A stretch of DNA of 64,000 bases, taken from Bacteroidales bacterium (GTDB lineage: Bacteria > Bacteroidota > Bacteroidia > Bacteroidales > UBA932). The stretch's first letter is position 1, and every line of letters begins with the position of its first letter. The notes under the pieces were generated by a model. That model was given only the letters and a program-made list of their open reading frames with translations, was not told the DNA's origin and searched no databases. This document shows positions 7,421-37,403 of this stretch, piece by piece. The position numbers and the translations under genes were made by a program. The stretch covers positions 24,547 to 88,546 of the forward strand of contig JAGCCX010000081.1 of the NCBI GenBank assembly GCA_017651465.1, given 5' to 3'.

Positions 7421-7434
7421 TCAGATACAAAATA

Positions 7435-7467: not shown

Positions 7468-7483
7468 GGAGTTGAAGTGTTGA

Positions 7484-10521: not shown

Positions 10522-10595
10522 GGCGGGGTAGCTCAGCTGGTTAGAGCGTCGGATTCATAATCCGGAGGTCGTGGGATCATGCCCCACCCCCGCTA
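10522..10595 (+). tRNA. tRNA-Met (anticodon CAT)
   Basis: 74 bases. Acceptor arms GGCGGGG/CCCCGCT (one G-U at the end), D arm GCTC...GAGC, anticodon loop TTCATAA with CAT, T stem GTGGG/CCCAC and discriminator A. CCA is not encoded, as usual in Bacteroidetes. The T loop reads ATCATGC instead of the normal TTCRANY, so positions 54 and 58 are A and T rather than T and A. Its 3' 30 bases are the target of integration (see att sites). An elongator rather than initiator role is inferred from the G-U-closed acceptor; ile-lysidine modification of the CAT anticodon cannot be excluded. Confidence 0.92.
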
Positions 10596-10596
10596 C
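10566..10596 (+). other. Attachment site copy 1 (3' end of tRNA-Met)
   Basis: The 31-base segment starting AGGTCGTGGGATCATGCC and ending CCCGCTAC is shared with 16222-16252 (one mismatch) and 37306-37336 (identical). This copy completes the functional tRNA, as expected for attL of an element that restores the 3' end on integration. Confidence 0.9.
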
Positions 10597-10610
10597 GAAA
10601 TGGCAAAAAG

Positions 10611-16044: not shown

Positions 16045-16252
16045 CGGCGGCTTAATAAATGGCGGTTGAATTCTCGGCGGAAAAAACTATATTTGCATTC
16101 GGTTGCTGTTATATGCGACCATTAGTTCATTGGCACATATATAGTCGCACTTTATATCCGGCGGTTAGAGTCCCTGCTTGTGGTTCAGCTGTAGATTTTG
16201 CGTCGTTAAAGAAATAGTTTTAGGTCGTGGGATCATGCCCCACTCCCGCTAC
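16045..16252. other. Right-end sequence of E1 with arm-like repeats
   Basis: Homologous to 37125-37336. Shared in the same order: TCGGCGG repeats, GCGGTTG, GCGACC, TAGTTC.TTGGCACATATAT, CGGCGGTTA, CAGCTGT, and TTTGCGTCGTT, just before the att core. The interval 15995-16300 has no gene. Confidence 0.7.
16222..16252 (+). other. Attachment site copy 2 (junction of E1 and E2)
   Basis: 31 bases matching the tRNA-Met 3' end with one change (CACTCCCGCT for CACCCCCGCT). No complete tRNA surrounds it; the upstream bases are element-derived. Confidence 0.88.
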
Positions 16253-16257
16253 CAAAC

Positions 16258-16552: not shown

Positions 16553-16692
16553 ACGAAAGAAAAGCCACCAGATTCTTTGGTCTGATGGCATGTAGAGAGG
16601 TTATGGCACCAAGATATCCACTAAGAAGCAGTGGTCAAGCAAGCAAGAGAGATGGTGCCAAGGTCGATAGTCTCCCCAAGAATAAGGCTTTG
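16553..16692 (+). ncRNA. Repeated intergenic sequence family Y, copy 1
   Basis: Homologous over about 140 bases to 18575-18715, with 62 identical consecutive bases (16600-16661). The core can fold: outer stem GGCACCA/TGGTGCC, inner stem CCACT/AGTGG. It sits immediately upstream of the AlbA_2 gene; copy 2 lies downstream of it. It could be a structured RNA, a regulator binding site or direct repeats left by insertion of the gene. Confidence 0.5.
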
Positions 16693-18574: not shown

Positions 18575-18715
18575 AAAAGAAAAGTCACCAGAACACCCGT
18601 ATGATGGCATGTGAAAAGGTTATGGCACCAAGATATCCACTAAGAAGCAGTGGTCAAGCAAGCAAGAGAGATGGTGCCAAAGTCGATAGTACTCCTTAGA
18701 AGTATAAGGGTTTGA
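18575..18715 (+). ncRNA. Repeated intergenic sequence family Y, copy 2
   Basis: The identical 62-base core is at 18619-18680. The same two nested stems are kept, while the flanks have diverged. It lies about 90 bases upstream of the HEPN-like pseudogene, so both copies stand before an ORF. Confidence 0.5.
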
Positions 18716-19706: not shown

Positions 19707-19888
19707 CAAACGGGTACTCTTCCATCAATCAGAGATACCTTCAAGACCAGAGTTCTATCATGAGTAGAGCGGCTTGGGGGTATCGGCTTTGACATTCCTC
19801 CGGCAATCCTCCTCGGTCCGGTGTCAGTGAGCGTTTTCTGGTTAGTTTTATTTCATATATGAGGGTTTGAGGCGATTCTGGGGCGGTT
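19707..19888 (+). ncRNA. Repeated intergenic sequence family X, copy 2
   Basis: Second copy of the family at 12749-12931, sharing CTCTTCCATCA, CAGAGATAC, ATCATGAGT, GTATCGGCTTTGACATTC and GGGGCGGTTTT. Here the stem TGACA/TGTCA encloses a CCGG/CCGG pairing. It lies downstream of the HEPN-like pseudogene. Confidence 0.45.
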
Positions 19889-20578: not shown

Positions 20579-21937
20579 ATGAAAAAGAATCAATATACTA
20601 GACTCATTGCTTTGAGTATTGTATCTCTATTCTTGACAGCGTGCATAACCGGAACGCCAGGTGCTTCCGGGAATAGTGCCGTAAACAAGAATACTCCGGC
20701 CGTGAATGTCCCAACGGCAGATCCAAATGCGCCTCAGACCAGTGCGGCCACTCAGGAAACAGGTGTATATCCTACCACTCCGAATCCTGTGGTCAATGTG
20801 TACCTGGAAATCTCCGGAAGTATGAACGGCTACGTAAACGGTGGCACCTCGACCTTCCAGCAGGTTGTCAAGGAGTATCTTTCCGGAATCAATAATGCCG
20901 GTTTTGCGTCTGCTGTCAATTATTACTACGTGGGGAGCAAAATCACTTCCAAGGGAAATGATCTGAACAATTACATCACAAAGTTGACTCCGTCTTCCTT
21001 TGGCGCTGCAGGTGGTGGTGCGACCACCGATATTGGCGGTCTGTTCAAGACCATCCTGGGCAACATGGATAGTAACACTATTTCGATTTTCATCTCTGAC
21101 TGCATCATTTCGCCTGGCAGCAATACCAATACTGCTGCATACGCACGTGGTCAGATGACCGATGTGCGCGATGCCATTGTCAGCTACACCAATCATTATG
21201 AAGATCTGGCCTGCCTGGTTTATCAGTTTGATTCCGAGTTCAACGGTCGTTACTTCGACTATCAGAACCATCCTCGTAAGGTAAATATGCAGCGCCCGTT
21301 CTATATCTGGGTGTTTGGACATACAGCTCATGTGGCTATGATGAAACTCCAGTATGTCCCGGATAAGGATTTCAAGGTAGCCCCGATTCGCAATCAGTGG
21401 ATTATCTTCAATACTCCGCTGTCAGCACTTCAAGACAACAACAAGTACGGTCTTCTCCTCCCGAACACGGCAAAGAATGGCCAGTATGTTCGTAAATCTG
21501 GGACAGAACTTCGCACCATCCAGAAGGCCGGTGATAATTATCGCTTCTCGTTTGGCGCGAATCTGCTTACAGCGCAGTTCCTGATGGGCGATGATTATGT
21601 TGAGGACACCAGGAACTACAAGCAGATGATTGGGAAAGCCGTCAAGGAAAAGTTCTACGGAGAGATTGAGAAGGATTTCAATCAGTCATCTCCGTTCTCA
21701 GAGATTTTCCGTGTGGATTCTGATTCTCCTTTCCAGAAAGGAACGTTCTCTCTCGCGTTTATTCCTGAGGTTCCTGACTGGGCATATGAATGCACGGATA
21801 CCGATGACCGCATGTTTAACGGGGCCAATGATAACAAGACCTATGGCCTCAACAACATTTTCGAGGGTGTCTTCAATGGCTTCAATAATGGCGGCCACAT
21901 CAACATTCTGGCTCAGTTTGACTTCGAAATAAAATAA
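20579..21937 (+). CDS. vWA-like lipoprotein, first gene of the E2 operon
   Basis: 452 residues. The lipoprotein signal MKKNQYTRLIALSIVSLFLTAC has Cys22 at the lipobox LTAC. A Ser/Pro/Thr/Ala-rich linker (residues 25-70) leads to a domain opening VVNVYLEISGSMNGYVNG. This resembles the MIDAS start of a von Willebrand A domain, DxSxS, with Glu77 in place of the first Asp. Later elements fit as well: GGGATTDIGGLF (MIDAS Thr) and ISIFISDCIISP (MIDAS Asp). It is therefore probably an envelope-anchored, metal-dependent adhesion or scaffold protein outside the inner membrane. It heads an operon of 11 genes with gaps under 20 bp. Confidence 0.8.
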   Translation: MKKNQYTRLIALSIVSLFLTACITGTPGASGNSAVNKNTPAVNVPTADPNAPQTSAATQETGVYPTTPNPVVNVYLEISGSMNGYVNGGTSTFQQVVKEYLSGINNAGFASAVNYYYVGSKITSKGNDLNNYITKLTPSSFGAAGGGATTDIGGLFKTILGNMDSNTISIFISDCIISPGSNTNTAAYARGQMTDVRDAIVSYTNHYEDLACLVYQFDSEFNGRYFDYQNHPRKVNMQRPFYIWVFGHTAHVAMMKLQYVPDKDFKVAPIRNQWIIFNTPLSALQDNNKYGLLLPNTAKNGQYVRKSGTELRTIQKAGDNYRFSFGANLLTAQFLMGDDYVEDTRNYKQMIGKAVKEKFYGEIEKDFNQSSPFSEIFRVDSDSPFQKGTFSLAFIPEVPDWAYECTDTDDRMFNGANDNKTYGLNNIFEGVFNGFNNGGHINILAQFDFEIK

Positions 21938-21946
21938 AACACAGAT

Positions 21947-22411
21947 ATGGAATTCTTTTCACTGTTCTACCAGCTCAATGTCTACGGGCAGGATTTGTTC
22001 TATCACCTGAAGGGATGGGACAATGGAATGCAGGACTTTGTGGCGGCCAACAATCAATTCCCGACAATCTGGCTTGTCACCTTCCTGTCCGCCGTGGCAA
22101 TGTTTGTAGTTTTCTACTACATTCTCAATCACCCCAGGTTTAACAAGTTCTGGCATTGGCTTATCGCCCTTGCTGTTCTTGCAATCGGAATCTTCATCTG
22201 GTCAAGAGGACTTGTACTTGCCGACATTACCGGCGCATCCATGCATCCGGTTGACCCGTCCCTGAATATCAGCGCAGACAATGCAATGATGTTCGGTGTG
22301 TACAACGCTGTCCTTTCTGCGATCTTCTTCCTGTTCTTCTCCGTTATTGGAAGATTCGGAAGCAAGAACTGCAAGAATGCTCCTTGGAAGTCACTCATTA
22401 ACAGGAAATAG
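21947..22411 (+). CDS. Three-TM membrane protein of the E2 operon
   Basis: 154 residues, nine bases after the previous stop. Hydrophobic segments: about 41-60 (TIWLVTFLSAVAMFVVFYYI), 68-86 (WHWLIALAVLAIGIFIWSR) and 116-134 (YNAVLSAIFFLFFSVIGRF), followed by a basic C-terminus. The N-terminal 35 residues are amphipathic and aromatic. No known family is recognised. Its position between a lipoprotein and a tubulin-like protein suggests a membrane adaptor. Confidence 0.75.
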   Translation: MEFFSLFYQLNVYGQDLFYHLKGWDNGMQDFVAANNQFPTIWLVTFLSAVAMFVVFYYILNHPRFNKFWHWLIALAVLAIGIFIWSRGLVLADITGASMHPVDPSLNISADNAMMFGVYNAVLSAIFFLFFSVIGRFGSKNCKNAPWKSLINRK

Positions 22412-22413
22412 CC

Positions 22414-23856
22414 ATGGCAAAGTTATACGTATTTGGTATAGGCGGTACGGGTTCACGTACCCTTCGCGCTCTCACTATGATGCTGGCCAGCGGTGTTGAA
22501 TGCAAGTTCGACACAGTTGTTCCTGTTATCATCGACCCCGATGCCTCTGCAGCAGATATGAGTCGCACCGTAGATGCGATGACTCGCTATATGAAGGTCC
22601 GCAAGTCCCTTGATTTTAACTCTGCTAACGAGAACCGATTCTTCAAGACTGAGATTTGCCCTATTCAGGACATGTCTACCTTCAAACTCACGCTGGAGAA
22701 TACTGAGAATGTCACATTCCGTGACTACATGAAAACAAACCAGATGGATGCTCCCAGTAAGGCACTCATCAATATGCTTTTCTCTCAAGCCAACCTTGAT
22801 TCCGATATGGTGGTCGGCTTCAAGGGAAATCCGAATATCGGCAGTGTGGTCCTGAATCAGTTCTCCACTTCTGATGCCTACAAGGCTTTCTCCAATAACT
22901 TCGAGGAAGGGGACCGTATTTTCATTATCAGCTCCATCTTCGGCGGCACCGGCGCCAGTGGCTTCCCGCTGCTGCTCAAGACGCTCCGCAACGACCAGAC
23001 TTCCCAGCATTGGAATTACATCAAAAACGCCAAAATTGGTGCAGTGACTGTCCTACCGTATTTCAACGTTGAGCAGGACGACAATAGTGGTGTGGATTCA
23101 TCAACTTTCTATTCCAAGACCAAATCCGCCTTAGCATATTATGACAGGAATATCACTGGTAACAATTCAGTGAATGCCTTGTACTACATTGGCGACAGCA
23201 TGCTGGCTACGTACAAGAATCATGACGGCGGTTCTGAGCAGCGCAACAACGCCCACATGGTTGAGTTATACGCTGCTCTCTCAATCCTGAAGTTCGCTTC
23301 CACTCCGGACAACGAATTGGACGGCCGGACTCAGACTTATGAATATGGCATCGACACAAACGACGAGGACATCAAGCAGGTTATCTTCAAAGACCTTGGC
23401 CCCGAAACTCGTCAACTTATTCAGAAGCCTCTTACGATGTTCTTATTGATGAACAAATACATGAAGAGCGCTCTTTCTTCTCAGTATAAGTACCAGCCTT
23501 GGGCTAAAGATTGTGGTCTTGACGAGAACTTCTTCACGTCACAATACTACGCTGACCTCGTCAAATTCCAGGATGCCTTCCGTGTATGGCTTCAGGAACT
23601 GGATGACAACAAGCGCTCCTTTAAGCCCTTCGACGAGAATCGGGTAATTCCGCTCTTTGACCTTGTCAACGGAGCTAAAGCGCATAAGATACTCTGGCCG
23701 CTGCACGACCTTTTCGCCAAGAATTATGCGTTGATGGATTCGTTCCTCAACACCAACTGGCCGAAATGGAATAAGACTGCTTCTAAAGAACAAAAATTCA
23801 TGGAAGTGTTCTATCGTGCCACTAATAAGTTGACCCTCAAGAAATATAACTTCTAA
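22414..23856 (+). CDS. Tubulin-like protein (Tubulin_2/PF13809-type)
   Basis: 480 residues. The N-terminal Rossmann start LYVFGIGGTGSRTLRAL (Gly loop at 8-15) and the tubulin-signature-like loop FGGTGASG (176-183, matching GGGTGSG) are in the expected order and spacing for the tubulin/FtsZ superfamily. Overall similarity to FtsZ is low, so it belongs to the bacterial tubulin-like group rather than cell-division FtsZ. It presumably binds GTP and may polymerise on the cytoplasmic side. It begins two bases after the 3-TM protein and is followed four bases later by an actin-fold ATPase, an unusual pairing. Confidence 0.82.
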   Translation: MAKLYVFGIGGTGSRTLRALTMMLASGVECKFDTVVPVIIDPDASAADMSRTVDAMTRYMKVRKSLDFNSANENRFFKTEICPIQDMSTFKLTLENTENVTFRDYMKTNQMDAPSKALINMLFSQANLDSDMVVGFKGNPNIGSVVLNQFSTSDAYKAFSNNFEEGDRIFIISSIFGGTGASGFPLLLKTLRNDQTSQHWNYIKNAKIGAVTVLPYFNVEQDDNSGVDSSTFYSKTKSALAYYDRNITGNNSVNALYYIGDSMLATYKNHDGGSEQRNNAHMVELYAALSILKFASTPDNELDGRTQTYEYGIDTNDEDIKQVIFKDLGPETRQLIQKPLTMFLLMNKYMKSALSSQYKYQPWAKDCGLDENFFTSQYYADLVKFQDAFRVWLQELDDNKRSFKPFDENRVIPLFDLVNGAKAHKILWPLHDLFAKNYALMDSFLNTNWPKWNKTASKEQKFMEVFYRATNKLTLKKYNF

Positions 23857-23860
23857 GATT

Positions 23861-26800
23861 ATGGCAAAGGTTTTCAGAATACATAAGGAAGGCTCTGGTA
23901 ACATTATTGACTGGGCAAAGAGCCATTCGTACGGAGATAACGTAATCAAGCAGATTACCGACCCCTTCGGTGCCAAGGCGACCAAGGAGATTACCTCCAT
24001 ACCTTCGCCGTTCTCAAGAATTGACCTGGCTGTCACTGCATTCAAGACTGTAGTGGAGGCCGGCCTGGAAGGCGCTACCATCTATCATAAGATTGTGTCC
24101 GACTGCCTTGACATTGGCGAAATCTTCTTCAACGCAGAGAATTTCAAAGATCCGCGTGACCATAGCAAAAACAAGATTGAAATCCTTGTTTGGGACCGTG
24201 CCCAGGAGATTGCCAAATTGAAGAATTCTCCCGTAAAGGAGCACAAGATTGTTGGCGAGACTCTTGATATGTATCTTAATCAGGATGCCAAGGCCTACAA
24301 CTTTGACAAGATGGACAAAGTCTATCTCCTCAACTACAAAGGCCCTGACCGGAAAGACCCTCAAATCAATATCATAGGTGCCACTTCACCGGCTACGCTC
24401 TTCTTCAGCTCTGCGAATGATTTGTCTTATGTTTCAGACCATCTACGTTTCCGGAACAACGATCGTCCATTCGATTCCGAATATACGCCACTGTACAAAC
24501 GTGATATTGAATTCCAGAAGTTCCTTTATGCGTTGAGGCTTAGCATCGGAAAGACGCAGTTCGCCGCACTGTTTGGTGCTGTGGATTCCTATATGGACCA
24601 GTCTTACGGTTATCTTAGCGAAGAGTACAAGGCCAAAATAGATGCGCTGAATGAGGAATCCGTGGAGAATTACGAGGTACTTACCGACGGAGGCAGCAAC
24701 CGTGTTGATATTCTCGGCTATCCTGTGCGTAAGCGGAACGAGACTGGTATCATAGAGAGTGACTTTGAGATTCTTGCTACCAACAAGAGCGCTATCAAGC
24801 CCCTCGTTCTTCCTGTGGAGGCAGGCAATACTTACAAGAACCTGAATTACGTCCAGGGCCAGTGGAAGGAGACTTATCAGGCCCCCATGCATGATGATGC
24901 AGACCTGACAAGCCGTCAGCTTCCTTATATCGGCCTGAAGTACCCCTATCTCACCATTGATGACTTCCTTTCGCGGGATATGGTATTCCTTCCGTACTCC
25001 TTCAATTCGAATGACTTTTACAACGGGAACAAAGACCCCAGGAAGAGCAACAACACATTCCTGCTGCCTCTGACCAAGACATTCTTCCAGTACTTCACGG
25101 TCAATGACCTGATGGGAACCATGAAGGACGGTAAGAACATGTTCGAGATTCAGCCGCTCCAGGGAGGTAGTGTGAATGTCGAACTGCGTATTCCTATTAA
25201 AAAGGGTGGATATATCCGGTATTCCAGAATGTACGTTCCGGGTAAATCCATCGACCTTACCGATAACTCAGGCTGCATAACAGAAAAACAGTTCGGACTT
25301 GGCGTGATGCCTCTTGTCCGCTTTGGCGATGGAATATTGCCCAGTTATCGTATTGCTATGTTCAGCAAATCGGCTCGTACTGAGCTTGAGTTTGCTAATG
25401 GCGAAAGCACTTGCCAGATTGAACATCATATTACTCGTCGTGAGGCAGGGCAGAATGCCTGTAGCGTGGAGTCGTATGTAATGGAGCACAATTTTGATGT
25501 GATATACGCCACGGTAGACGGCCTTACGAATGTGATTATTCCTCGCTTCCGCAAGGCCTCTGGCGGCTCCCAGTTTACATTTGCTATTGACTTTGGTACC
25601 ACGAATACACACATTGAGTATTCGGTAGATGGTTCTGCTCCGAAGGCCTTTGATATGCCGGCCGCTGAGAGTCAGCTTTGCCGCCTTAGCACGGACTACG
25701 AAGAGCAGGAAGCCATTGATATCAATGTCGCCTTTGACGAGGCATTTATTCCGTCCACCATTGGTGACGCATCTGATTATCATTTCCCGATGCGTACTGT
25801 ATACGCAGAATGGACCGACGTCAATTATCAGCAGCATACCGAAACTTTGGCAGAAGGTAACATTCCTTTCCGCTATGAAAAGGCACGTAACCCTCTGTAT
25901 AACAAGGTAAAGACCAATCTTAAATGGTCTAAGGCTGAAGAAGCAAATACCCGTGTCAAACTGTACATCGAGAATCTCTTCATTATGATGAGGAATAAGG
26001 TTCTCCTGTCAGGTGGCCGTCTTTCTGACACCAAGGTTATCTGGTTCTATCCTGCCAGTATGACGGAGTTCCGACTCAATGCTTTCCGTGGTGTCTGGGA
26101 AAAACTCTTCTCTAAGTACATCAATGCTAATTCTAATGACAAGCTGCTTTGCCTGTCTGAATCCGCAGCACCTTACTTCTTCTATAAGAACCGTCGTGGC
26201 TTGACCTCCAATGCCGTTACTATTGACGTGGGCGGTGGAACTACGGATGTCCTGGTCATTAAGGATGATGTCCCCGTGGCAATGACCTCCTTCCGTTTTG
26301 CCTCCAATGCAATTTTCGGCGATGGCTACAACTGGAGTCCGGAAACCAACGGCTTTGTGAAGAAGTACAAAGGAGATATCAACGACCGTTTGGTGGGCAA
26401 TTCCATGCACCTGAAAGATGCCCTCAACGCCTATCAGGAAATCATGAATAGCGATAATTCCAGCGACATAGCAGCCTTCTTCTTCTCGCTGGCCGGCAAT
26501 GCATCTGTCGTAAAGAACAGAATTCCCCTGGACTTCATGGCCATGCTCTGCAACGACCCGAAGATGAAGTATGTATTTATCGTCTTCTATGGCTCTGTGA
26601 TATATCATATCGCCAAGATGATCAAGGCAAAGAATCTACCGGTTCCTCAGGTTGTTGCCTTCAGTGGTAACGGCTCCAAGACCCTTAACGTTCTTTCACC
26701 GTCAGACCAGACCATTTCAGAATTCGTTACCCGAATCTTCCGGAAGGTTCTTGGCGAATGCCCTGAAATTCGTGTCATCAAAGAAGAAGAACCCAAACTT

Positions 26801-27232
26801 GCAACGAGTAAAGGCGGTATTTACTATGACAACTCTCTCTCTTATGAGGGCATTGAAAAACTGCGCTTCTCGCAGTTAGGTGCAGATGATACCACCTCCA
26901 CGGAAGGGAAGAAGTACAATGAAGTCAATAATGATTCTGCTATCAATGCCGTCAGCAATAACGTTAGCAAGTTCATTGATGAACTCTTCCATATCACTGA
27001 TGCCAATAAGTTTATGGTGCGCTCTTTGGGCGCAGACCCGAGCTTGTTCGAGCAGATTCCGGATCTGTGCAAGTACAACCTTGTTGAATTCACACGTCAA
27101 GGCCTAAAGGCCAAGTTGAACGAACTCAGTGACTGGGGCCAAGACCCGACCGCTCCCATTGAGGAAACCATGTTCTTCTATCCTATTGTTGCCATGTTAA
27201 ACAACCTCGCTCGCGAGATTAGCAATAAATAA
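23861..27232 (+). CDS. Large protein with C-terminal actin/Hsp70-type ATPase domain
   Basis: 1123 residues. The first about 560 residues are an uncharacterised region (beta-rich, no TM). From there the actin-fold motifs follow in order: phosphate-1 AIDFGTTNTH (575-584), phosphate-2 IDVGGGTTDVLV (788-799) and the adenosine motif VVAFSGNGSK (931-940). These match Hsp70/MreB/ParM-like ATPases; no substrate-binding Hsp70 domain is present. It probably couples ATP binding to assembly with the adjacent tubulin-like protein or the motor channel. It is more than twice the size of ordinary actin homologues because of the N-terminal extension. Confidence 0.85.
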   Translation: MAKVFRIHKEGSGNIIDWAKSHSYGDNVIKQITDPFGAKATKEITSIPSPFSRIDLAVTAFKTVVEAGLEGATIYHKIVSDCLDIGEIFFNAENFKDPRDHSKNKIEILVWDRAQEIAKLKNSPVKEHKIVGETLDMYLNQDAKAYNFDKMDKVYLLNYKGPDRKDPQINIIGATSPATLFFSSANDLSYVSDHLRFRNNDRPFDSEYTPLYKRDIEFQKFLYALRLSIGKTQFAALFGAVDSYMDQSYGYLSEEYKAKIDALNEESVENYEVLTDGGSNRVDILGYPVRKRNETGIIESDFEILATNKSAIKPLVLPVEAGNTYKNLNYVQGQWKETYQAPMHDDADLTSRQLPYIGLKYPYLTIDDFLSRDMVFLPYSFNSNDFYNGNKDPRKSNNTFLLPLTKTFFQYFTVNDLMGTMKDGKNMFEIQPLQGGSVNVELRIPIKKGGYIRYSRMYVPGKSIDLTDNSGCITEKQFGLGVMPLVRFGDGILPSYRIAMFSKSARTELEFANGESTCQIEHHITRREAGQNACSVESYVMEHNFDVIYATVDGLTNVIIPRFRKASGGSQFTFAIDFGTTNTHIEYSVDGSAPKAFDMPAAESQLCRLSTDYEEQEAIDINVAFDEAFIPSTIGDASDYHFPMRTVYAEWTDVNYQQHTETLAEGNIPFRYEKARNPLYNKVKTNLKWSKAEEANTRVKLYIENLFIMMRNKVLLSGGRLSDTKVIWFYPASMTEFRLNAFRGVWEKLFSKYINANSNDKLLCLSESAAPYFFYKNRRGLTSNAVTIDVGGGTTDVLVIKDDVPVAMTSFRFASNAIFGDGYNWSPETNGFVKKYKGDINDRLVGNSMHLKDALNAYQEIMNSDNSSDIAAFFFSLAGNASVVKNRIPLDFMAMLCNDPKMKYVFIVFYGSVIYHIAKMIKAKNLPVPQVVAFSGNGSKTLNVLSPSDQTISEFVTRIFRKVLGECPEIRVIKEEEPKLATSKGGIYYDNSLSYEGIEKLRFSQLGADDTTSTEGKKYNEVNNDSAINAVSNNVSKFIDELFHITDANKFMVRSLGADPSLFEQIPDLCKYNLVEFTRQGLKAKLNELSDWGQDPTAPIEETMFFYPIVAMLNNLAREISNK

Positions 27233-27240
27233 AGGAGCAG

Positions 27241-27894
27241 ATGGATTCGAATAATTTAGTATTGATAATCATTCTGATTGCAGTTGTCCTTGCACTGGTA
27301 TTGTCTCTGATAGCCCTTATTTCAGCCAAGAAAGCATCGGATCGCAGTCACAATATTGGTCATATTGCCCGAGAGGAAATTCGCCGATACATGGGTTTTG
27401 AAGGTGAGCAGCGTATTAAGAGTGCTATCCGCGATGAATTGTCTCGAGAGCAGCAAAAGAATGACGGACCTAAACAGGAGCTGGTTAAGTCTGCAGAGAC
27501 AGTCGTGAACACTCCGGAGAAAGAGGAAAAGCCCATGGAGGTTGTTCCTGCCCAAGAAGCCGAGACCGAGAAAGCCCCTGTTGAGATTACTCTTCCGGAG
27601 CCTGTCACTTTCTATACTGGAATTTGCAAGGAAGGCGCATTTAAGCACGTAACTACCGCCCCGGACAGTAAGACAATCTTTACCATCTATGCCGAAAGCA
27701 AAGATGCCGTTAACGGTATCCTCAACGTTGATCAAAGTGCTTACGACAAGATTGCACAGACGCCTGATTACTTGCAAAATGCCTGCGTGTATAGCGGGAA
27801 TGGTACACAACTCAAAATAACCAAGACTGGTACTGTTCAGAAAGAGAATGGCACCTGGGTCGTTAAGGAGCCCATTGTGGCTGAATTTAACTAA
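27241..27894 (+). CDS. Single-pass membrane protein of the E2 operon
   Basis: 217 residues. An N-terminal TM (NLVLIIILIAVVLALVLSLIAL) is followed by a basic/helical stretch (ASDRSHNIGHIAREEIRRYMG), a Glu/Pro/Lys-rich linker (about 75-120) and a compact C-terminal beta domain from PVTFYTGICKEGAF. The topology suggests a cytoplasmic domain tethered by the helix. No family is recognised. It sits between the actin-fold ATPase and the motor channel and could link them. Confidence 0.75.
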   Translation: MDSNNLVLIIILIAVVLALVLSLIALISAKKASDRSHNIGHIAREEIRRYMGFEGEQRIKSAIRDELSREQQKNDGPKQELVKSAETVVNTPEKEEKPMEVVPAQEAETEKAPVEITLPEPVTFYTGICKEGAFKHVTTAPDSKTIFTIYAESKDAVNGILNVDQSAYDKIAQTPDYLQNACVYSGNGTQLKITKTGTVQKENGTWVVKEPIVAEFN

Positions 27895-27902
27895 CTGATT
27901 AA

Positions 27903-29480
27903 ATGACAGGAATAGATATTACCAAGTTCATTCCGGAACTTATCTTTGTCGCAATAATCGTTGTTTTACAATTCAGGTTTTTCTTCGCCAATTCTTGGAA
28001 AAGAAATATCCTGAAGGGCATCTTCCCAGAGAAACTTGAAGACAACCTTGCTGTCGACAAAGATGAAGAGGGTGTTGCAAAGATTGTGACCTCGGACAAG
28101 GTAAGCGATACCCTGCGTGATGAAATCATTGCCCCAATCAATTCTTATCTTGAGAATAATAAGGGGGCAACTGATTACCACATTATTAAAGACTTATCAG
28201 ACCGTACCTGTGACAAGATACAGGATGAGGTTGATTCATACAATCCCATTCCGCTGTACCTTGGCCTTTGCGGTACAATGCTGGGCATCATATTCGGTAT
28301 TTTCTTCCTTTTTAGGGCAGGTGGTCTTGAATCACTTTTGGCATCAGCATCTTCCGCCGGAACAACATCCGGAGCAGCTGCATCTGAGGGCATTCAGCAT
28401 CTTCTCGGAGGTGTGGCTGTCGCAATGATTGCGAGCCTATTTGGCGTTGTTTTGACAATTATCGGCACACGTCATACCAAAGAGGCTGTATCGGCTAACG
28501 AGGAAGGACGCAACAAGTTCTTGTCTTGGATACAGAGCAATCTGTTGCCGAAGATGAGCAGTGATGTGGTGAGTACTCTGGGTAACTTCTACCAGAACCT
28601 GAATGAATTCAATGGAACGTTCTCCAGGAACTCTAAGGAGTTACAGGAGGCCTTCGAAGCCATCAAAAATGCATATGCTGGCCAAACGGAATATGCAAAA
28701 GAACTCAATAAACTGGACATTGCAAAAGCTCAAATGGCTTTTGCCGCGTTAGGGGGCGCCACAGACAAGATTAACGATCTCAATGAGTTCTTGAAAGGCT
28801 CGTCGCAGTACCTGGCCAGTGTAGTCGCCTTGGCTAATAAGTTGGATACGGCTGATGAAAGAACAAAGGCCATCGAGCGGATGGGCCAGTTCTTCCAGAG
28901 CGAGATTGAGCAGATTTCTGCCCGCAAGGCCCTTCTTTCTGAGACGGTTGGTAAGATTGACCTGAACCTTAGGAATTCTCTTGATGGCCTTCAAACTTCC
29001 TCCACTGAACATGTAGGAAATCTTCAGACGCACCTCAATAAGGTGTATCTGGACTTCCAAAATGCAGTAGCGGAACAACAGAGGTTACTTGAGCAGAAAC
29101 TTTCCGAATCTTCTCTATATCTTGAGCAGTTTAAACGTCTTGAAACCATTCAGGGCCAATTGGATAAGATGCTTAAGTCCGAAGAGTTTATTGATAAGGC
29201 TGATGCAGAGATAGCTAGACTTGACACTCAAATTGGAAGATTAGATCGGATTGAATCGGCCCTCAACCGTCTGATAGAGATTGTTTCAAAGCGTCCCGCA
29301 GTCGCAAGCCCGGCGGTACGGGAAGCCACCTTGTTCGACAATCCTCAACAGCCTCAGGATGTTAAAGTCAAGGTTAATCTGCCAGTACCACGTTGGCTGG
29401 CATTTACTACTTGCGGCGTTCTCATAGCTGCCGGACTTTTCTCAATCGTTTATCCTTTACTGATAAAGTTCCTTGGATAA
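27903..29480 (+). CDS. MotA/TolQ/ExbB-type channel protein with long coiled-coil tail (ZorA-like)
   Basis: 525 residues. TM1 at about 13-29, TM2 at 117-137 (PLYLGLCGTMLGIIFGIFFLF) and TM3 at 168-188 (LGGVAVAMIASLFGVVLTIIG) give the MotA/TolQ core with its conserved Gly-Thr and small-residue helices. A long helical, Gln/Glu/Leu-rich cytoplasmic tail (about 200-470) follows, then a further TM near 499-521. The long tail is like ZorA of the Zorya anti-phage system and unlike plain ExbB. It forms an ion-conducting stator with the next protein. The extra C-terminal TM is unusual for ZorA. Confidence 0.8.
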   Translation: MTGIDITKFIPELIFVAIIVVLQFRFFFANSWKRNILKGIFPEKLEDNLAVDKDEEGVAKIVTSDKVSDTLRDEIIAPINSYLENNKGATDYHIIKDLSDRTCDKIQDEVDSYNPIPLYLGLCGTMLGIIFGIFFLFRAGGLESLLASASSAGTTSGAAASEGIQHLLGGVAVAMIASLFGVVLTIIGTRHTKEAVSANEEGRNKFLSWIQSNLLPKMSSDVVSTLGNFYQNLNEFNGTFSRNSKELQEAFEAIKNAYAGQTEYAKELNKLDIAKAQMAFAALGGATDKINDLNEFLKGSSQYLASVVALANKLDTADERTKAIERMGQFFQSEIEQISARKALLSETVGKIDLNLRNSLDGLQTSSTEHVGNLQTHLNKVYLDFQNAVAEQQRLLEQKLSESSLYLEQFKRLETIQGQLDKMLKSEEFIDKADAEIARLDTQIGRLDRIESALNRLIEIVSKRPAVASPAVREATLFDNPQQPQDVKVKVNLPVPRWLAFTTCGVLIAAGLFSIVYPLLIKFLG

Positions 29481-29481
29481 A

Positions 29482-30129
29482 ATGGCCAAGAAGAAAAGAG
29501 AATCCTTTTTCTGGACAAGCTATTCTGACATGATGACGAGTCTGTTCTTCATCATGTTAACTTTGTTTGTCCTGGCCATTGCTTTGCTGCATCGTGAGGT
29601 CGTACAGATTGGGAAAGATAAGGAAGCAACGGAAGCTGAGCTTCAGAAAATCAACGAGATACGTACGGCCGTTCAAAGTATTGACTCCACCTATTTTTTA
29701 TACGATCCTGGTTACAAGAAGCATATCTTGAAGACTGAGGTAAAATTCCAGAAAGGAAGTGCTAATATCAACGACCTCGACCAGGCCACTCAAGCGGAAC
29801 TGCTTGCGGTTAGGGATACCATCAAATCTTTCCTCGATGACCTAATCGCCAAAGATAAGAGTGCATCATACCTGTTGATTATTGAGGGACAGGCATCAAA
29901 GGATAATTATGCCCTGAATAACCAACTCAGCTACGATAGGGCGCTATCTCTGTTCAAGTTTTGGTTTCCTAACCAAAGAGAAACCACGCTTCAGTTCTAT
30001 AATCTTCCGTGCGAGGTGGTTATTGCCGGCGCAGGCTATATGGAAGGAAAGCCTAGAGCTCCCAGGAATGAAGATAACCAGCGCTTCCTTATCCAGATTA
30101 TCCCTAAGCCTGGTATTATAGATGAGTAG
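29482..30129 (+). CDS. MotB/ZorB-like OmpA-domain motor protein
   Basis: 215 residues from the ATG at 29482; a TTG three codons upstream overlaps the previous gene and is less likely. The N-terminus FFWTSYSDMMTSLFFIMLTLFV is a MotB-type plug and TM with the ion-carrying Asp16. A coiled linker leads to a C-terminal OmpA-like peptidoglycan-binding domain (LIIEGQASKDNYALNNQLSY and DRALSLFKFW). It pairs with the ZorA-like protein to make an ion-driven stator anchored in the cell wall. The gene overlaps the nuclease gene by eight bases. Confidence 0.85.
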   Translation: MAKKKRESFFWTSYSDMMTSLFFIMLTLFVLAIALLHREVVQIGKDKEATEAELQKINEIRTAVQSIDSTYFLYDPGYKKHILKTEVKFQKGSANINDLDQATQAELLAVRDTIKSFLDDLIAKDKSASYLLIIEGQASKDNYALNNQLSYDRALSLFKFWFPNQRETTLQFYNLPCEVVIAGAGYMEGKPRAPRNEDNQRFLIQIIPKPGIIDE

Positions 30130-30916
30130 TAGGCATCTCACATACCTTCTGCTGAGCGTTGTGTTCGCTGTAAGCTGCATCCCGGCGCGCCCCAATGGGA
30201 ATCCGGGAAGACAGCAGCGACCAACTGGAGCCAGCCTGCTCGAGTTGCCGGCTGTAAGGCAGAGTGAGGTAATCACGTTACATACTGGCTACACATCTTC
30301 ATTCAACTCCACCCTGATGATTCCCAACTGGGTGGCGTATGAATTGACGGCAGAAGAGTTACAAGGAACAGTAAGGCGTCCCAGTAATTCTCCATTCCAG
30401 CCCGATCCTGATTATCGAGGCAAACAGCCGGATAGAAGCGACTATTCACGCACAGGCTGGGATAAAGGTCATCTGGCCCCTTGTGCCGATATGAAATGGA
30501 GCGAACAGGCCATGTTCGAGAGTTTCTTCTTTACCAACGTTTGCCCGCAGAATCACGATTTCAATGAGAAGGACTGGCAGAAACTTGAGGACAAGGCTCG
30601 TTCCATCGCACGAAAGAAAGGATCTGTTTACATTGTTTGCGGACCGATAGTGACCACCAACGAATATGGTAGGCTGGGGAAGAACCAAGTGGCCATTCCC
30701 GACTATTTCTTCAAGGCCTTCCTTTATAAGGACGATGCCGGATTCCATTCAATTGCCTATGTTATGCCGAATCAGTACACAGGGCGGCCTGTGAATGAAT
30801 TCGCTATGTCCGTCAATGAGTTGGAGAAGATACTTGGCATAGACCTCTTTTCGCGCCTAAATGATAAGATAGAGGAAACCGTTGAGGAGCAGTTGAACCT
30901 TGATGATTGGAGGTAA
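30122..30916 (+). CDS. DNA/RNA non-specific endonuclease (NUC family), lipoprotein
   Basis: 264 residues. The signal ends at a lipobox AVSC (Cys19). The catalytic motif WDKGHLAPCADM (Asp114, His117) and NVCPQNHDFN (Asn144) match the DRGH-type beta-beta-alpha-metal nucleases of the Serratia NucA/NUC family, with Lys for Arg in DRGH. Being lipidated and exported, it should cut nucleic acid in the periplasm or at the surface rather than the chromosome. Start and stop overlap show co-translation with the MotB-like gene. In an anti-phage system it would attack incoming DNA. Confidence 0.88.
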   Translation: MSSRHLTYLLLSVVFAVSCIPARPNGNPGRQQRPTGASLLELPAVRQSEVITLHTGYTSSFNSTLMIPNWVAYELTAEELQGTVRRPSNSPFQPDPDYRGKQPDRSDYSRTGWDKGHLAPCADMKWSEQAMFESFFFTNVCPQNHDFNEKDWQKLEDKARSIARKKGSVYIVCGPIVTTNEYGRLGKNQVAIPDYFFKAFLYKDDAGFHSIAYVMPNQYTGRPVNEFAMSVNELEKILGIDLFSRLNDKIEETVEEQLNLDDWR

Positions 30917-30922
30917 CGGATC

Positions 30923-31240
30923 ATGACGAAGAAAGACACTTCCATACAATCGATCATCTTCGTGGCATTGGCGTTTCTGCTACTCCTTTGTCTCGCGAAA
31001 ATGCCGTATGGATTCTATCAGATAGTGAGATTTCTGGCTTTTGCCGGGTTTGCCTATTCTGCCTACCTTCAATACAAAGCAAAGAGCACGGATAGGAAGA
31101 TTCTGTTCATTGTCCTCGCTCTGCTGTTCCAGCCTTTCCTTCCGCTGTCATTGGGCCGGATAATCTGGAATATTGTCGATGTTATTGTTGCCGGGTATCT
31201 GATATACCTTCTGGCGCAGATGCACCTTAAGAAGAAATAA
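30923..31240 (+). CDS. DUF6804-like small membrane protein
   Basis: 105 residues with three to four hydrophobic segments: IQSIIFVALAFLLLLCL, IVRFLAFAGFAYSAYLQ, ILFIVLALLFQPFLPL and IVDVIVAGYLIYLLAQ. The pattern MPYGFYQIVRFLAFAGFAY is like the DUF6804 family, which is scattered in gut bacteria. Function unknown. It is six bases after the nuclease gene, within the same operon. Confidence 0.65.
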   Translation: MTKKDTSIQSIIFVALAFLLLLCLAKMPYGFYQIVRFLAFAGFAYSAYLQYKAKSTDRKILFIVLALLFQPFLPLSLGRIIWNIVDVIVAGYLIYLLAQMHLKKK

Positions 31241-31249
31241 TAGAAGCCT

Positions 31250-32659
31250 ATGTATAAGCCTCCCTATGTCATACAACCATCTTCGCTGGACTTCTTCGGC
31301 GACAAGTTGCACGGAACCGGGAAATGGACGTTGCACAAGATTACCAGGCCGTTTGACCCTGTCCTTATGGATGCACCCCAAGAGTTCGCTCAGTACAATT
31401 TCTACGGCTACGTAGGGAAATCCGTCCGGACTGCGTTGGAAGTTGAACGCGAAGATGCCCAGCTCGTGAAACCACAAGCCTATGAGTCGGTCCCATATGT
31501 CAGGGCGTCCTTCCAAACTCCCGAGCCAACACAGGAGTCTGTTGATGCCTTATTGGTAGAGGAGGCGAAAAAAGCCATCCGAGTGATGCTATTCGGAAGC
31601 GTTGATAAAAAGCGTCAGATGTACATAATTGAAAGACGTGGCACCAGACTTGATGCCGAGCAGAAGAAATGGATTGCCGATAAGGAAGCCTTTGAAAAGG
31701 TCGAGGACGAAAACGAGAATAGGCACAATGCGGAGGAGGCGAAGAAGAAAGAGAAAGCGCAGGAAGTAATAGACAAGTATGACAAAGCACATAAGGCAAA
31801 CGAACTGTTTCTGTATTCAACACAGGAGGAAGTTGAGGAACTGTTTCAGCGACTGAATCCTCATTTCCCGGCCGATTTCAACGCTTTCTATCAGGTCGAT
31901 TTGGCTCACAAACTGGTCAATATCAGTTTTGAGGCACCTTCAGAAAGAATAATCCCTGAAGAAAAACTTGTTTTCCATTCCAGAGGTTCCTCCCTCAAAC
32001 CAAAGACTCGCACAGAGATCAATAAAGACTATGTGGACTGTATCTGCAGCCTCGCATATGTATTGGCAGCCCAATGCTTCAATCTAACCGGTAAAGTGGA
32101 TAATGTGTTCATCTCGGCCTATTCTAAGGCGTTGAATCCACAGACCGCCACATTCGAGGAGTCCACACTTTATTCCATAGTCTTTGACCGTGATACATTC
32201 AACTGGGTGATTAGGCCGAAATCATTCCAGCCATATGAGTCGTTGGTGTTTTTCCCGCACACAATAGAGTTGGGTGCACGGCTCAACATCCAGCCAATTG
32301 ATCCGCTTGACCTTGCTCCTGCAGGAGAAGTAATACCGGGAAACAACCAGTTTGTTGACGTAACAAAAAGAGATGAGCGATACTCCCATGGAGAGAATAA
32401 AAATGAGAAGAATAACGATAGACCTGATGCTCTACGAACAAATCAAAACAGACTACGTGAAGCAGCAGAACTTGTTGTGACTTGTCAGAAAGCATCGGTG
32501 CCATTCTTGCAGACACGCCTAGGGATGGGATTCGCAAAGGCGTCATTTATTATTGGCCAACTAGAGACTATGGGTATTATAGGCCCCCAAGAGGATAATA
32601 GGCCTAGAGTAGTTCTAGTTTCTAGTATCTACGATTTAGAAAAACTGTTCGAATCTTAA
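31250..32659 (+). CDS. Coiled-coil protein with C-terminal FtsK-gamma-like winged helix
   Basis: 469 residues. N-terminal half helical with a charged coil (EAKKKEKAQEVIDKYDKAHK). The middle domain DYVDCICSLAYVLAAQCFNL and STLYSIVFDRDTFNWV is shared with the divergent 541-residue protein at 33469. The C-terminal about 65 residues (ELVVTCQKASVPFLQTRLGM, then AKASFIIGQLETMGIIGPQ) match the FtsK gamma winged-helix domain, which in FtsK reads KOPS DNA sequences. No motor domain is present, so the module is borrowed as a DNA- or protein-binding head. The role in the system is unknown; it is the only clear sequence-specific DNA-binding candidate in the operon. Confidence 0.78.
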   Translation: MYKPPYVIQPSSLDFFGDKLHGTGKWTLHKITRPFDPVLMDAPQEFAQYNFYGYVGKSVRTALEVEREDAQLVKPQAYESVPYVRASFQTPEPTQESVDALLVEEAKKAIRVMLFGSVDKKRQMYIIERRGTRLDAEQKKWIADKEAFEKVEDENENRHNAEEAKKKEKAQEVIDKYDKAHKANELFLYSTQEEVEELFQRLNPHFPADFNAFYQVDLAHKLVNISFEAPSERIIPEEKLVFHSRGSSLKPKTRTEINKDYVDCICSLAYVLAAQCFNLTGKVDNVFISAYSKALNPQTATFEESTLYSIVFDRDTFNWVIRPKSFQPYESLVFFPHTIELGARLNIQPIDPLDLAPAGEVIPGNNQFVDVTKRDERYSHGENKNEKNNDRPDALRTNQNRLREAAELVVTCQKASVPFLQTRLGMGFAKASFIIGQLETMGIIGPQEDNRPRVVLVSSIYDLEKLFES

Positions 32660-32678
32660 TAATCATAGAATAGCAATA

Positions 32679-33434
32679 ATGAGAAAGAAACTGTTTGAAA
32701 TAATTGAACAAGCACGAGATGGCAACAAAATAAGTCTTGCGTATGACATCTTTATGCTTATTGCAATTTCAATAAGCATTATTCCGTTAATGTTCGTTGA
32801 AGAGAATGACGCCTTTCGAATTATTGAACAGGTTACTGTAGGTATATTCATTATTGACTATTTGCTTCGTTGGATAACAGCAGATTATAGATTGAACAAA
32901 GGTAAATGGTCTTTTGTGCTCTATCCTATAACAGTTTGGGCAATTATTGACATGCTGTCTATTTTGCCGGCGTTGAGCGTACTAGGAAGAGGATTCAAAA
33001 TTTTCCGAATAACGCGTCTTTTGAGAATCTTGCGACTGTTTAAGTTTATCCGCTATTCTAATAAGATTCAGGTTCTTGGAAAGGTGATTAACAAAGAAAA
33101 GGGCGTTCTCTTAACAGTCTTAGGGATAGCTGTTTTCTATGTGTTTCTTACTGCGTTAATTATGTTTAATGCAGAGCCACACATTAACCCGCTTACAGGT
33201 AATGCTACTTTTGAGGACTTCTTTGACGCTTTATATTGGGCAACAGTTACTTTGACAACAGTGGGCTATGGAGATATGATTCCTGTTACAGATATTGGCC
33301 GTTTTGTTAGTATGCTCTCATCTCTTTTTGGCGTGGCAGTAATAGCACTGCCATCAGGAGTAATAACGGCCAGCTACCTAGAGGAACTTCGAAATGCGAA
33401 GAATGATAACTCTATTGAAAGGAAGGACGAATAA
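32679..33434 (+). CDS. Voltage-gated-type potassium channel
   Basis: 251 residues. Six TM segments with a basic S4 (FKIFRITRLLRILRLFKFIR, residues 106-125) and the selectivity filter TVGYGD at 194-199, matching prokaryotic Kv channels. It should pass K+ and respond to membrane potential. Lies 19 bases after the FtsK-gamma-type gene, so it is probably the last gene of the operon. An ion channel next to a motor and a nuclease suggests sensing or causing depolarisation. It could also be a bystander gene. Confidence 0.9.
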   Translation: MRKKLFEIIEQARDGNKISLAYDIFMLIAISISIIPLMFVEENDAFRIIEQVTVGIFIIDYLLRWITADYRLNKGKWSFVLYPITVWAIIDMLSILPALSVLGRGFKIFRITRLLRILRLFKFIRYSNKIQVLGKVINKEKGVLLTVLGIAVFYVFLTALIMFNAEPHINPLTGNATFEDFFDALYWATVTLTTVGYGDMIPVTDIGRFVSMLSSLFGVAVIALPSGVITASYLEELRNAKNDNSIERKDE

Positions 33435-37124: not shown

Positions 37125-37336
37125 CGGTTGTAATCTTCGGCGGAAACACTTATCTTTGTTGTTGGTCGCTGGTTTTGAACTTATTTGCGACCTATAGTTC
37201 TTTGGCACATATATGGTCACACTTTTTCGGCGGTTATCCTCGGCGGAAAAACACCATCCTATATACCTCCAGCTGTGAATTTGCGTCGTTGATATATTTG
37301 TAATTAGGTCGTGGGATCATGCCCCACCCCCGCTAC
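37125..37336. other. Right-end sequence of E2 with arm-like repeats
   Basis: Homologue of 16045-16252: TCGGCGG repeats at 37125, 37139, 37230 and 37242 or nearby, GCGACC, GTTCTTTGGCACATATAT and TTTGCGTCGTT in the same order just before the att core. Nothing else is seen in 36979-37403 apart from att copy 3, a hairpin and a promoter. Confidence 0.7.
37306..37336 (+). other. Attachment site copy 3 (right boundary of E2)
   Basis: 31 bases identical to the tRNA-Met 3' end at 10566-10596. As the rightmost copy it is probably the original chromosomal tRNA tail displaced by the two insertions. Confidence 0.9.
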
Positions 37337-37342
37337 CGAAAT

Positions 37343-37374
37343 CCACGAGTTTTGCGGCTCGTGGTATTTTTTTT
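37343..37374 (+). terminator. Hairpin after att copy 3, probable original tRNA terminator
   Basis: CCACGAG (37343-37349) pairs with CTCGTGG (37358-37364), followed by TATTTTTTTT. It is a classical intrinsic terminator. Confidence 0.8.
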
Positions 37375-37375
37375 G

Positions 37376-37383
37376 TATATTTG
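37376..37383 (+). promoter_or_regulatory. -7 box of the TonB-plug-like lipoprotein gene
   Basis: TATATTTG, about 20 bases before the ATG at 37404 and directly after the terminator T-run. Confidence 0.65.
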
Positions 37384-37403
37384 ACAGAAAAAGACAGTTG
37401 GTT

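What the first reader, a model, noticed from the sequence alone, without database searches (positions are those of the whole stretch)
20579..33434. Candidate undescribed system: tubulin-like, actin-like, ZorAB-like motor, vWA lipoprotein and exported nuclease in one operon
Eleven genes on one strand with gaps under 20 bp combine two cytoskeletal NTPase folds (GIGGTGSR/FGGTGASG and the three actin-fold motifs), a MotA/ZorA-like channel with a long coiled-coil tail, its OmpA-domain partner, a vWA-like lipoprotein, a NUC nuclease with lipobox, an FtsK-gamma winged helix and a K+ channel, all inside an integrated element. ZorAB-type motors are known from Zorya defence, but Zorya uses cytoplasmic ZorC/D/E effectors; here the effector candidate is extracytoplasmic and two filament-type NTPases are added. 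I infer an envelope sensor/motor that releases or activates a nuclease against phage DNA.
Basis: partly seen in the sequence, partly recalled or inferred. Interest (0 to 1): 0.93.

Follow-up and report, generated by a model that had tools for sequence, protein, structure and literature searches.

The report
Cytoskeleton-motor operon with swappable secreted effectors
A mobile island in a Bacteroidales-type bacterium carries a conserved gene set that joins relatives of two cell-division filament proteins to an ion-driven membrane motor and to exchangeable exported enzymes that cut DNA or protein, which may make it an untested kind of defence system at the cell envelope.

Summary
Ten of the eleven genes form one unit: the nearest relative (L002) has g1-g10 in order, and DNA similarity to the window stops at the operon. 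The core (vWA-like lipoprotein, small membrane protein, Tubulin_2/FtsZl1, ~1100-aa FtsA/MreB-like actin-fold protein) recurs across Bacteroidota and on cyanobacterial plasmids; the actin-fold gene follows tubulin in 35 of 36 other loci, the exception ending inside tubulin. A ZorA/ZorB-like pair is present in 18 of 36. The operon tail carries an exported Endonuclease_NS (8 of 36) or a retropepsin-like aspartyl protease (6 of 36), with at least four changes between them on the tree. The K+ channel was in none of the 36. The island is bounded by copies of the tRNA-Met 3' end. Flank ORFs of relatives match 118 PADLOC families, control ORFs 1 (a rough contrast). It is not Zorya: no ZorC/D/E in the window proteins scanned. 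Tubulin-vWA-OmpA operons were predicted in 2010 (membrane remodelling), tubulin-vWA neighbourhoods in 2020 (conflict). The FtsA-like partner, Zorya-type motor and swapped exported effectors appear new. Best reading: a modular envelope conflict machine. No function was tested.

The parts
10564..10600 (+). 3' end of tRNA-Met(CAT), left attachment copy of the tandem islands
16220..16256 (+). second copy of the tRNA-Met 3' end; left border of the unit that carries the operon
20579..21937 (+). g1: vWA-like lipoprotein (lipobox LTAC; MIDAS-like ExSGSM, T150, D174); fast evolving (66.8% to L002)
21947..22411 (+). g2: 154-aa membrane protein, three hydrophobic segments predicted, core part
22414..23856 (+). 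g3: tubulin/FtsZ-like GTPase, Tubulin_2 (PF13809, the FtsZ-like family of 2010)
23861..27232 (+). g4: 1123-aa protein; unknown N-terminal half and C-terminal FtsA/MreB-like actin-fold ATPase (motifs DFGTTN, DVGGGTTD, SGNGS)
27241..27894 (+). g5: single-TM protein; BLAST cluster of 22 members found after the actin-fold gene in many loci; variable (73.7% to L002)
27903..29480 (+). g6: ZorA/MotA-type channel subunit with long coiled-coil tail and a predicted C-terminal hydrophobic segment (506)
29482..30129 (+). g7: ZorB/MotB-type partner, TM Asp19 and OmpA-type domain (the ORF can also begin at TTG 29473; residue numbers count from there)
30122..30916 (+). g8: exported Endonuclease_NS (NUC) nuclease with lipobox-like N-terminus, H117/N148/E156 kept; effector candidate
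30923..31240 (+). g9: small membrane protein, in 4 of 36 relatives
31250..32659 (+). g10: protein with C-terminal FtsK_gamma winged helix; only in the nearest relative L002 (61%); probable accessory part
32679..33434 (+). g11: K+ channel; absent from the stretches of all 36 relatives, probably a passenger of the island
37304..37340 (+). third copy of the tRNA-Met 3' end; right border of the island

Best explanation
A modular, horizontally moving conflict (defence) machine of the cell envelope. Shown by sequence: a constant core of a vWA-like lipoprotein, a small membrane protein, an FtsZ-like GTPase and an FtsA/MreB-like ATPase, commonly followed by the membrane protein g5; a ZorA/ZorB-type ion channel with coiled-coil tail and OmpA-type partner in half of the loci; an exported hydrolase of exchangeable type in the tail of the set. 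Inferred mechanism: the fast-evolving vWA lipoprotein and g5 sense an insult at the envelope (phage adsorption or DNA entry, or a conjugation or contact apparatus); the FtsZ/FtsA-like pair assembles under the membrane and switches or anchors the ZorAB-type motor, which is fixed to peptidoglycan by ZorB; ion flow through the motor then unmasks or releases the exported effector (nuclease, aspartyl protease, or nuclease with a trypsin-like protease encoded just before it), which acts in the periplasm on incoming DNA or proteins. My odds: one modular unit about 0.95; a conflict role about 0.6; this order of events about 0.3.
For: One unit: a profile from near relatives, tested on 11 outlying loci, found tubulin in 11, actin-fold in 8, vWA-like in 8 and g2 in 6, each at the expected place; in 13 loci used in no profile (L002, L048, L049, L089-L098) tubulin 13, actin-fold 13, vWA-like 12, g2 11. 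All 19 of 299 family genomes with a long actin-fold match have the tubulin gene (hypergeometric 4e-29, kinship not corrected); 14 of 17 genomes with the ZorB-like gene have it (6e-17, same caveat). Mobile: blastn similarity to L002 covers 20636-32359 and nothing else of the window; tRNA-Met island with lower GC; patchy, 20 of 299 family genomes and 11 of 395 in the phylum. Constrained: dN/dS 0.01-0.06 in g2-g4 and g6-g8, against dN 0.26 (g1), 0.19 (g5), 0.31 (g10). Motor: ZorB Asp19 and Arg156, Arg195, Asn202, Arg204 in 13 of 13, ZorA Thr125 in 12 of 12; the best solved match of both is type I ZorAB, 8VVN (1.2e-10 for ZorB, 0.016 for ZorA). Effectors: NUC in 8 of 36, aspartyl protease in 6 of 36 with DTGAS intact, trypsin-like gene directly before NUC in L029 and L031 with GxSGG kept; at least 4 changes between NUC and aspartyl protease on the tubulin+actin tree, 15 labelled rows. 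Neighbourhood: 96 flank ORFs match 118 PADLOC families at 1e-10, with Type I specificity subunits in 3 ORFs; 96 control ORFs match 1 family.
Against: No function was tested and no structure model could be made. The PADLOC contrast counts redundant families, not genes: at least 3 flank ORFs are involved, and of 10 large flank ORFs scanned singly only 1 matched; the control ORFs lie beside ribosomal-protein genes and may include spurious ORFs of GC-rich DNA. 18 of 36 loci show no ZorAB-type pair (some because contigs end; L098 has a possible diverged ZorA), and three genomes without tubulin have a ZorB-like gene (G039, G123, weakly G080), so the motor is not an obligate partner. Effector candidates are exported whereas the NTPases are cytoplasmic by sequence; the link across the membrane is inference. 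The vWA assignment is weak by profile. Three outlying loci (L045-L047) were not recognised for actin-fold, vWA or g2 by the near-relative profiles.
Confidence: 0.5

Rival explanations
1. Membrane remodelling or vesicle biogenesis: the FtsZ/FtsA-like pair bends or divides membrane, and the vWA and OmpA-type proteins link it to the envelope (the 2010 proposal for FtsZl1).
For: FtsZl1 with vWA and OmpA-type proteins is the set described in PMC2875224; here an FtsA-like partner of the tubulin is added, as in the FtsZ-FtsA division pair.
Against: Patchy occurrence within the family, island location and unit transfer, and exchange of exported nuclease and protease are not expected of a housekeeping function.
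Confidence: 0.2
2. Energised envelope transport: the motor drives export or uptake across the envelope, with the nuclease and proteases digesting the cargo, for example environmental DNA or protein as food or genetic material.
For: The motor is of the MotAB/ExbBD class and the hydrolases are exported; a reviewer in PMC2875224 proposed a transport or signalling role for FtsZl1.
Against: No pore, receptor or TonB-type family was found among the window's operon proteins scanned; patchy island distribution; the hydrolase type changes while the core stays.
Confidence: 0.15
3. Interbacterial weapon or self-killing device: the effector acts on neighbours or on the host cell itself (abortive response).
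For: NUC-type nucleases and trypsin-like proteases are paired in System 3 of PMC7159879, proposed there to be deployed by proteolysis; effectors vary.
Against: No immunity gene or secretion apparatus was recognised among the window genes scanned; lipobox-like N-termini suggest anchoring rather than release.
Confidence: 0.12

Closest known systems
FtsZl1 (Tubulin_2)-vWA-OmpA predicted membrane-remodelling operons (Makarova and Koonin 2010, PMC2875224; parts 1-3 of 5 read)
   Same: Same tubulin-like family (PF13809), vWA-type partner that can carry a signal peptide, OmpA-type protein, many membrane proteins of unknown family.
   Different: No GTPase or protein kinase family among the window's operon proteins scanned (a kinase is annotated near the cyanobacterial locus L004); the constant actin-fold partner, the ZorA-type channel and the exchangeable exported nuclease or protease are not named in the parts read.
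GTPase-centric conflict systems with tubulin, HSP70 and vWA (Kaur et al. 2020, PMC7159879; section 29 and passages read)
   Same: Tubulin homologues next to membrane vWA proteins, a modular core with variable parts, conflict role proposed.
   Different: DO-GTPase, GAP1 and FNIII proteins define them; no GTPase family was found here. Section 29 describes the tubulin and HSP70 themes as non-overlapping; here the tubulin and actin-fold genes stand together.
Zorya (ZorAB motor; PMC11890865, passages read)
   Same: ZorA/ZorB-type channel with long coiled-coil tail and OmpA-type, probably peptidoglycan-binding partner; TM Asp conserved.
   Different: No ZorC, ZorD or ZorE among the window proteins scanned; exported effector candidates; in the window and near relatives the ZorA tail ends in an extra predicted hydrophobic segment.
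System 3, NucA-type endonuclease with trypsin-like peptidase (PMC7159879, passages read)
   Same: Endonuclease_NS next to a trypsin-like protease in L029 and L031.
   Different: Here attached to the tubulin/actin/ZorAB core; no trypsin-like gene was recognised beside the nuclease in the window itself.

Membership tests
FtsZl1/Tubulin_2 family | Pfam PF13809 above cut-off | tested here: met
   33.5 bits against a cut-off of 27; 34.9 bits in the genome search
FtsZl1-vWA operon (2010) | vWA-type and OmpA-type genes next to the tubulin gene | tested here: met
   vWA-like gene by profile in 32 of 36 loci, on the opposite strand in L005; OmpA-type ZorB-like gene in 18 of 36. The vWA label itself is not settled, see below
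FtsZl1-vWA operon (2010) | P-loop GTPase or protein kinase partner (frequent, not constant) | tested here: not met
   no such Pfam family in 10 of the 11 operon proteins (g9 not scanned)
Zorya | ZorA and ZorB | tested here: inconclusive
   PADLOC ZorB1 8.3e-14 and ZorA2 5.8e-5, but far below the NCBIfam cut-off for ZorB1 (26.4 of 400 bits)
Zorya | ZorC/ZorD or ZorE effector | tested here: not met
   no such PADLOC match among 10 operon and 10 flank proteins of the window; not tested in full for the relatives, where only 25 of 118 matched families were listed
DO-GTPase/GAP1 conflict systems (2020) | DO-GTPase and GAP1 proteins | tested here: inconclusive
   no GTPase family other than tubulin in Pfam scans of the window; I know of no GAP1 model in the libraries used
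Actin superfamily, FtsA/MreB-like | phosphate-1, phosphate-2 and adenosine motifs; profile match | tested here: met
   D577, G579, D789, G791, G792, D796, G936, G938 in 21 of 21
Actin superfamily, FtsA/MreB-like | three-dimensional fold | not testable with these tools
   structure prediction switched off
vWA domain | MIDAS residues and vWA fold | tested here: inconclusive
   motif pattern 18 of 18; no Pfam vWA match in 18 members; no PDB match; hhalign E 2.6e-4, probability 43%
tRNA-integrated element | direct repeats of a tRNA 3' end at the borders | tested here: met
tRNA-integrated element | own integrase | tested here: not met
   no integrase family among the island ORFs scanned; small ORFs, g9 and 37311-37790 were not scanned

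The most novel reading that the evidence does not exclude
A distinct class of bacterial envelope immunity in which an FtsZ-like and an FtsA-like protein, borrowed from the logic of cell division, form a membrane-bound switch that gates a peptidoglycan-anchored ion motor and through it fires interchangeable exported effectors (nuclease, retropepsin-like protease, trypsin-nuclease cascade) in the periplasm.
Probability: 0.3. Interest if true: 0.92.

Novelty: new variant of a known kind. Interest (0 to 1): 0.74.

Why it matters
The FtsZl1 proteins have had a predicted role since 2010, and I found no experimental test of it in the papers searched. The constant FtsA-like partner gives the tubulin a plausible membrane anchor, the Zorya-type motor gives an energised link to peptidoglycan, and the exchange of exported nuclease and protease around an unchanging core makes a conflict role directly testable. 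If right, it would be a defence machine that acts in the periplasm, before or while DNA enters, and it would put a tubulin-actin pair to use in immunity, of which I know no tested case.

Tried and rejected
Zorya membership: rejected, no ZorC/D/E in the window proteins scanned. Two unrelated neighbouring systems: rejected by co-occurrence and synteny. K+ channel as a part: rejected. Empty-site comparison through rpsB in 10 of 21 genus genomes with a match: none of the window's island or right-flank genes was found on the 10-20 kb fetched and no tRNA-Met beside rplM, so it gave no clean empty site. tRNA genes next to related loci: only L042 (tRNA-Leu) of 31 searched, so a tRNA site is not general. 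Phage relatives: no tubulin match in the phage records; L048 flank DNA none; one L048 flank protein matches 72-residue stretches of phage proteins, some annotated as tail fibre. One search used coordinates of the wrong locus and tells nothing. Plasmid records: tubulin in 6, actin-fold in 5 of the same records by tblastn; the sixth, L005, was recognised by profile. Window 10600-33500 has no near match among plasmids. Promoter and terminator scan near shuffle level. The full-length ZorA profile against PDB listed mainly coiled-coil proteins (best 60 of 77); the N-terminal part gave ZorA of 8VVN at 0.016. Paper searches that listed no description of the whole set: (open-licence PMC only).

The 36 relatives counted are L002-L005, L028-L047, L048, L049 and L089-L098. 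Left out: L001, L006-L027 and L054-L069 (short stretches of loci already held, or ZorB stretches fetched again), L050 (near copy of L049), L051-L053 (same contigs as L048-L050), L084-L088 (found by ZorB; no tubulin on the stretch). Several of the 36 served to build the profiles (g2 in particular for L003-L005 and L028-L047), so the independent tests are and the 13 loci named there.
Full report
What is there. The window holds eleven tightly packed + strand ORFs at 20579-33434. Profile searches support a Tubulin_2 protein (g3), an Endonuclease_NS protein (g8), an FtsK_gamma domain (g10) and a K+ channel (g11), and a ZorB/ZorA-like pair (g7, g6). Protein g4 has actin-fold motifs; as a family of 21 it matches MreB and Hsp70 in PDB, and its phosphate-2 region matches FtsA of two related genomes by hhalign at E 2e-8, with four controls at 0.3 or worse; one of the two FtsA proteins was checked with Pfam (PF14450 2.7e-35). 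Protein g1 is a lipoprotein with a MIDAS-like pattern in 18 of 18 aligned relatives, but no vWA profile matched in 18, no solved structure matched and hhalign to Bat-type vWA proteins is suggestive only.

It is one unit. In L002, an uncultured Bacteroidales (RUG173), g1-g10 are present in the same order (protein identity 61-97%), and blastn similarity to the window is confined to 20636-32359; at protein level L002 also has a 42% match to the window's NERD protein directly before g1. In 299 genomes of the family the tubulin was found in 20. The actin-fold profile gave long matches in 19, all among those 20; the remaining one, G129, has a contig that ends inside the tubulin gene. The other 66 of the 85 genomes reported matched only a short stretch near the phosphate-2 motif in smaller ORFs; one of these was confirmed as FtsA. 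A profile from near relatives, tested on 11 outlying loci, recognised at the expected positions tubulin in 11, actin-fold in 8, vWA-like in 8 and g2 in 6; L045-L047 account for the three actin-fold misses. In the phylum, 11 of 395 genomes (the window's own included) had a long actin-fold match; the 10 others were fetched and all 10 have tubulin directly before it. In all, of 36 relatives: tubulin 36 (the loci were found by tubulin or actin-fold searches), actin-fold 35, g2 34, vWA-like 32, ZorA+ZorB 18, NUC 8, g9 4, g10 1, g11 0. The vWA misses are L096, whose contig starts too late, and L045-L047, which have a 436-453 aa ORF there without a profile match. In L005 the vWA-like gene is on the other strand. 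Profiles were built from many of these rows; the 13 loci used in no profile give tubulin 13, actin-fold 13, vWA-like 12, g2 11. A TM protein of the g5 cluster commonly follows the actin-fold gene (22 members with the window's own).

The motor. ZorB-like proteins keep TM Asp19 and Arg156, Arg195, Asn202 and Arg204 in 13 of 13 aligned; ZorA-like proteins keep Thr125 in 12 of 12 and Ser or Thr at 178 in 12 of 12. The best solved match of both is 8VVN (1.2e-10; 0.016), which is type I ZorAB. Passages of PMC11890865 report that ZorB Asp24, peptidoglycan binding and the ZorA tail are needed for Zorya defence. The ZorB-like family occurs in 17 of 299 family genomes, 14 of them with tubulin. G039 and G123 have the pair without tubulin (L084, L085), and G080 a weaker ZorB match, so the motor module can be separate.

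Effector slot. Directly behind ZorB lies Endonuclease_NS in the window, L002, L028 and L040-L042, and with genes between in L029, L031 and L049. In L032-L036 a retropepsin-like aspartyl protease stands directly behind ZorB, and L089, in which no ZorAB-like pair was recognised, has one after g5. PF13975 was measured in L033 and L089; the other five cluster members, including L088 outside the 36, were assigned by BLAST cluster and the intact DTGAS motif. In L029 and L031 a trypsin-like gene directly precedes the nuclease (Pfam measured in L031 and L044; L029 and L085 by cluster); the serine motif GxSGG is present in 4 of 4, the His and Asp were not resolved. N-termini of these hydrolases look exported; by eye most have a lipobox-like Cys, the L029 nuclease has none. 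On a tubulin+actin tree of 33 rows (quick method, SH-aLRT only, some long branches flagged), the 15 rows labelled nuclease or aspartyl protease need at least 4 changes; for example L032 (protease) is sister to the window/L002/L028 clade (nuclease). This is the pattern of an exchangeable effector; the count cannot tell gain from loss.

Selection. Window against L002: dN/dS 0.01-0.06 for g2-g4 and g6-g8, 0.22 for g5; g1 and g10 have dN 0.26 and 0.31 with saturated dS; dS is above 1 for most genes, so ratios are rough. The machine is under strong constraint while g1, g5 and g10 vary, which fits sensor or partner-specific roles but could also come from older recombination.

Mobility. Three copies of the last 34-37 bases of tRNA-Met (10564, 16220, 37304) frame two tandem islands; the operon is in the second. 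These are the only three in the genome. GC is 0.424 and 0.435 inside, 0.564 and 0.567 outside. Each unit starts with an SLFN_AlbA/HATPase_c_4 protein; no integrase family was found in the ORFs scanned. A NERD protein (first unit), and an HTH protein and a CoiA_N protein with a weak DruB match (second unit), are also there.

Neighbourhood test. 96 flank ORFs (150 aa or more, from 20 family loci; 96 of 179 listed for all loci; recognised operon parts removed) match 118 PADLOC families at 1e-10, Type I specificity subunits in 3 ORFs. 96 control ORFs from the rpsB region of genus genomes, picked by hand from 147 (ORFs at rpsB, tsf and rplM, all of L107 and some ends left out), match 1 family. Families are redundant and some control ORFs may be spurious, so this is a contrast, not a gene count; of 10 large flank ORFs scanned singly 1 matched.

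Interpretation. Constant core plus changing exported hydrolases, island location, patchy distribution and company of defence genes favour a conflict function over housekeeping membrane remodelling. The order of events (sensing by g1/g5, assembly of the FtsZ/FtsA-like pair, gating of the motor, firing of the effector) is inference.

Known background. PMC2875224 (parts 1-3 of 5 read) defined FtsZl1, its vWA and OmpA-type neighbours and a membrane-remodelling hypothesis. PMC9871819 (passages) ties the FtsZ-like sequences of 2010 to PF13809. PMC7159879 (section 29 and passages) describes tubulin-vWA and HSP70 themes in GTPase-centred conflict systems and a nuclease-trypsin system. None of the parts read describes the set found here. 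I therefore file it as a new variant of a known, untested kind.

A small extra: Glu284 of the tubulin is invariant in 21 of 21 and may be the T7-type catalytic acid that the 2010 paper could not place; this is a guess from spacing, recalled from tubulin.

Noticed in passing
10564-10600, 16220-16256, 37304-37340: Two tandem islands behind tRNA-Met, each bounded by a copy of the tRNA 3' end and each beginning with an SLFN_AlbA/HATPase_c_4 gene; no integrase family found in the ORFs scanned, so mobilisation in trans is possible.
   Followed up: partly
16580-16682 / 18599-18701 and 12791-12850 / 19751-19810: Direct repeats of 103 and 60 nt, in gaps between the listed ORFs, around the SLFN genes of both island units.
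   Followed up: no
33469-35094 (-): 541-aa protein is a 33% paralogue of g10 (281 aa aligned, 1.4e-37); the match covers g10 83-358, not its FtsK_gamma part.
   Followed up: partly
L002:7099-7998: An ORF with 42% identity to the window's NERD protein lies directly before g1 in L002, whereas in the window NERD lies in the neighbouring island unit.
   Followed up: no
L084:5541-7647; L085 (ZorA/ZorB at 5741-7828 of the reversed locus): ZorA/ZorB-like pair of this subfamily in genomes without a tubulin match; a possible separate system.
   Followed up: partly
L048, L049, L050: The core set is on IMG/VR contigs; L049 and L050 also carry ZorA, ZorB and NUC. Whether these are proviruses or host contigs is open.
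   Followed up: partly
window g6 (27903-29480) and L028, L029, L031-L037: The ZorA-like tail ends in a predicted hydrophobic segment, not predicted in L040-L042 and L090-L093.
   Followed up: partly
46569-50045: 1158-aa protein with HisKA and HATPase_c domains, a sensor kinase in the chromosomal right flank.
   Followed up: no
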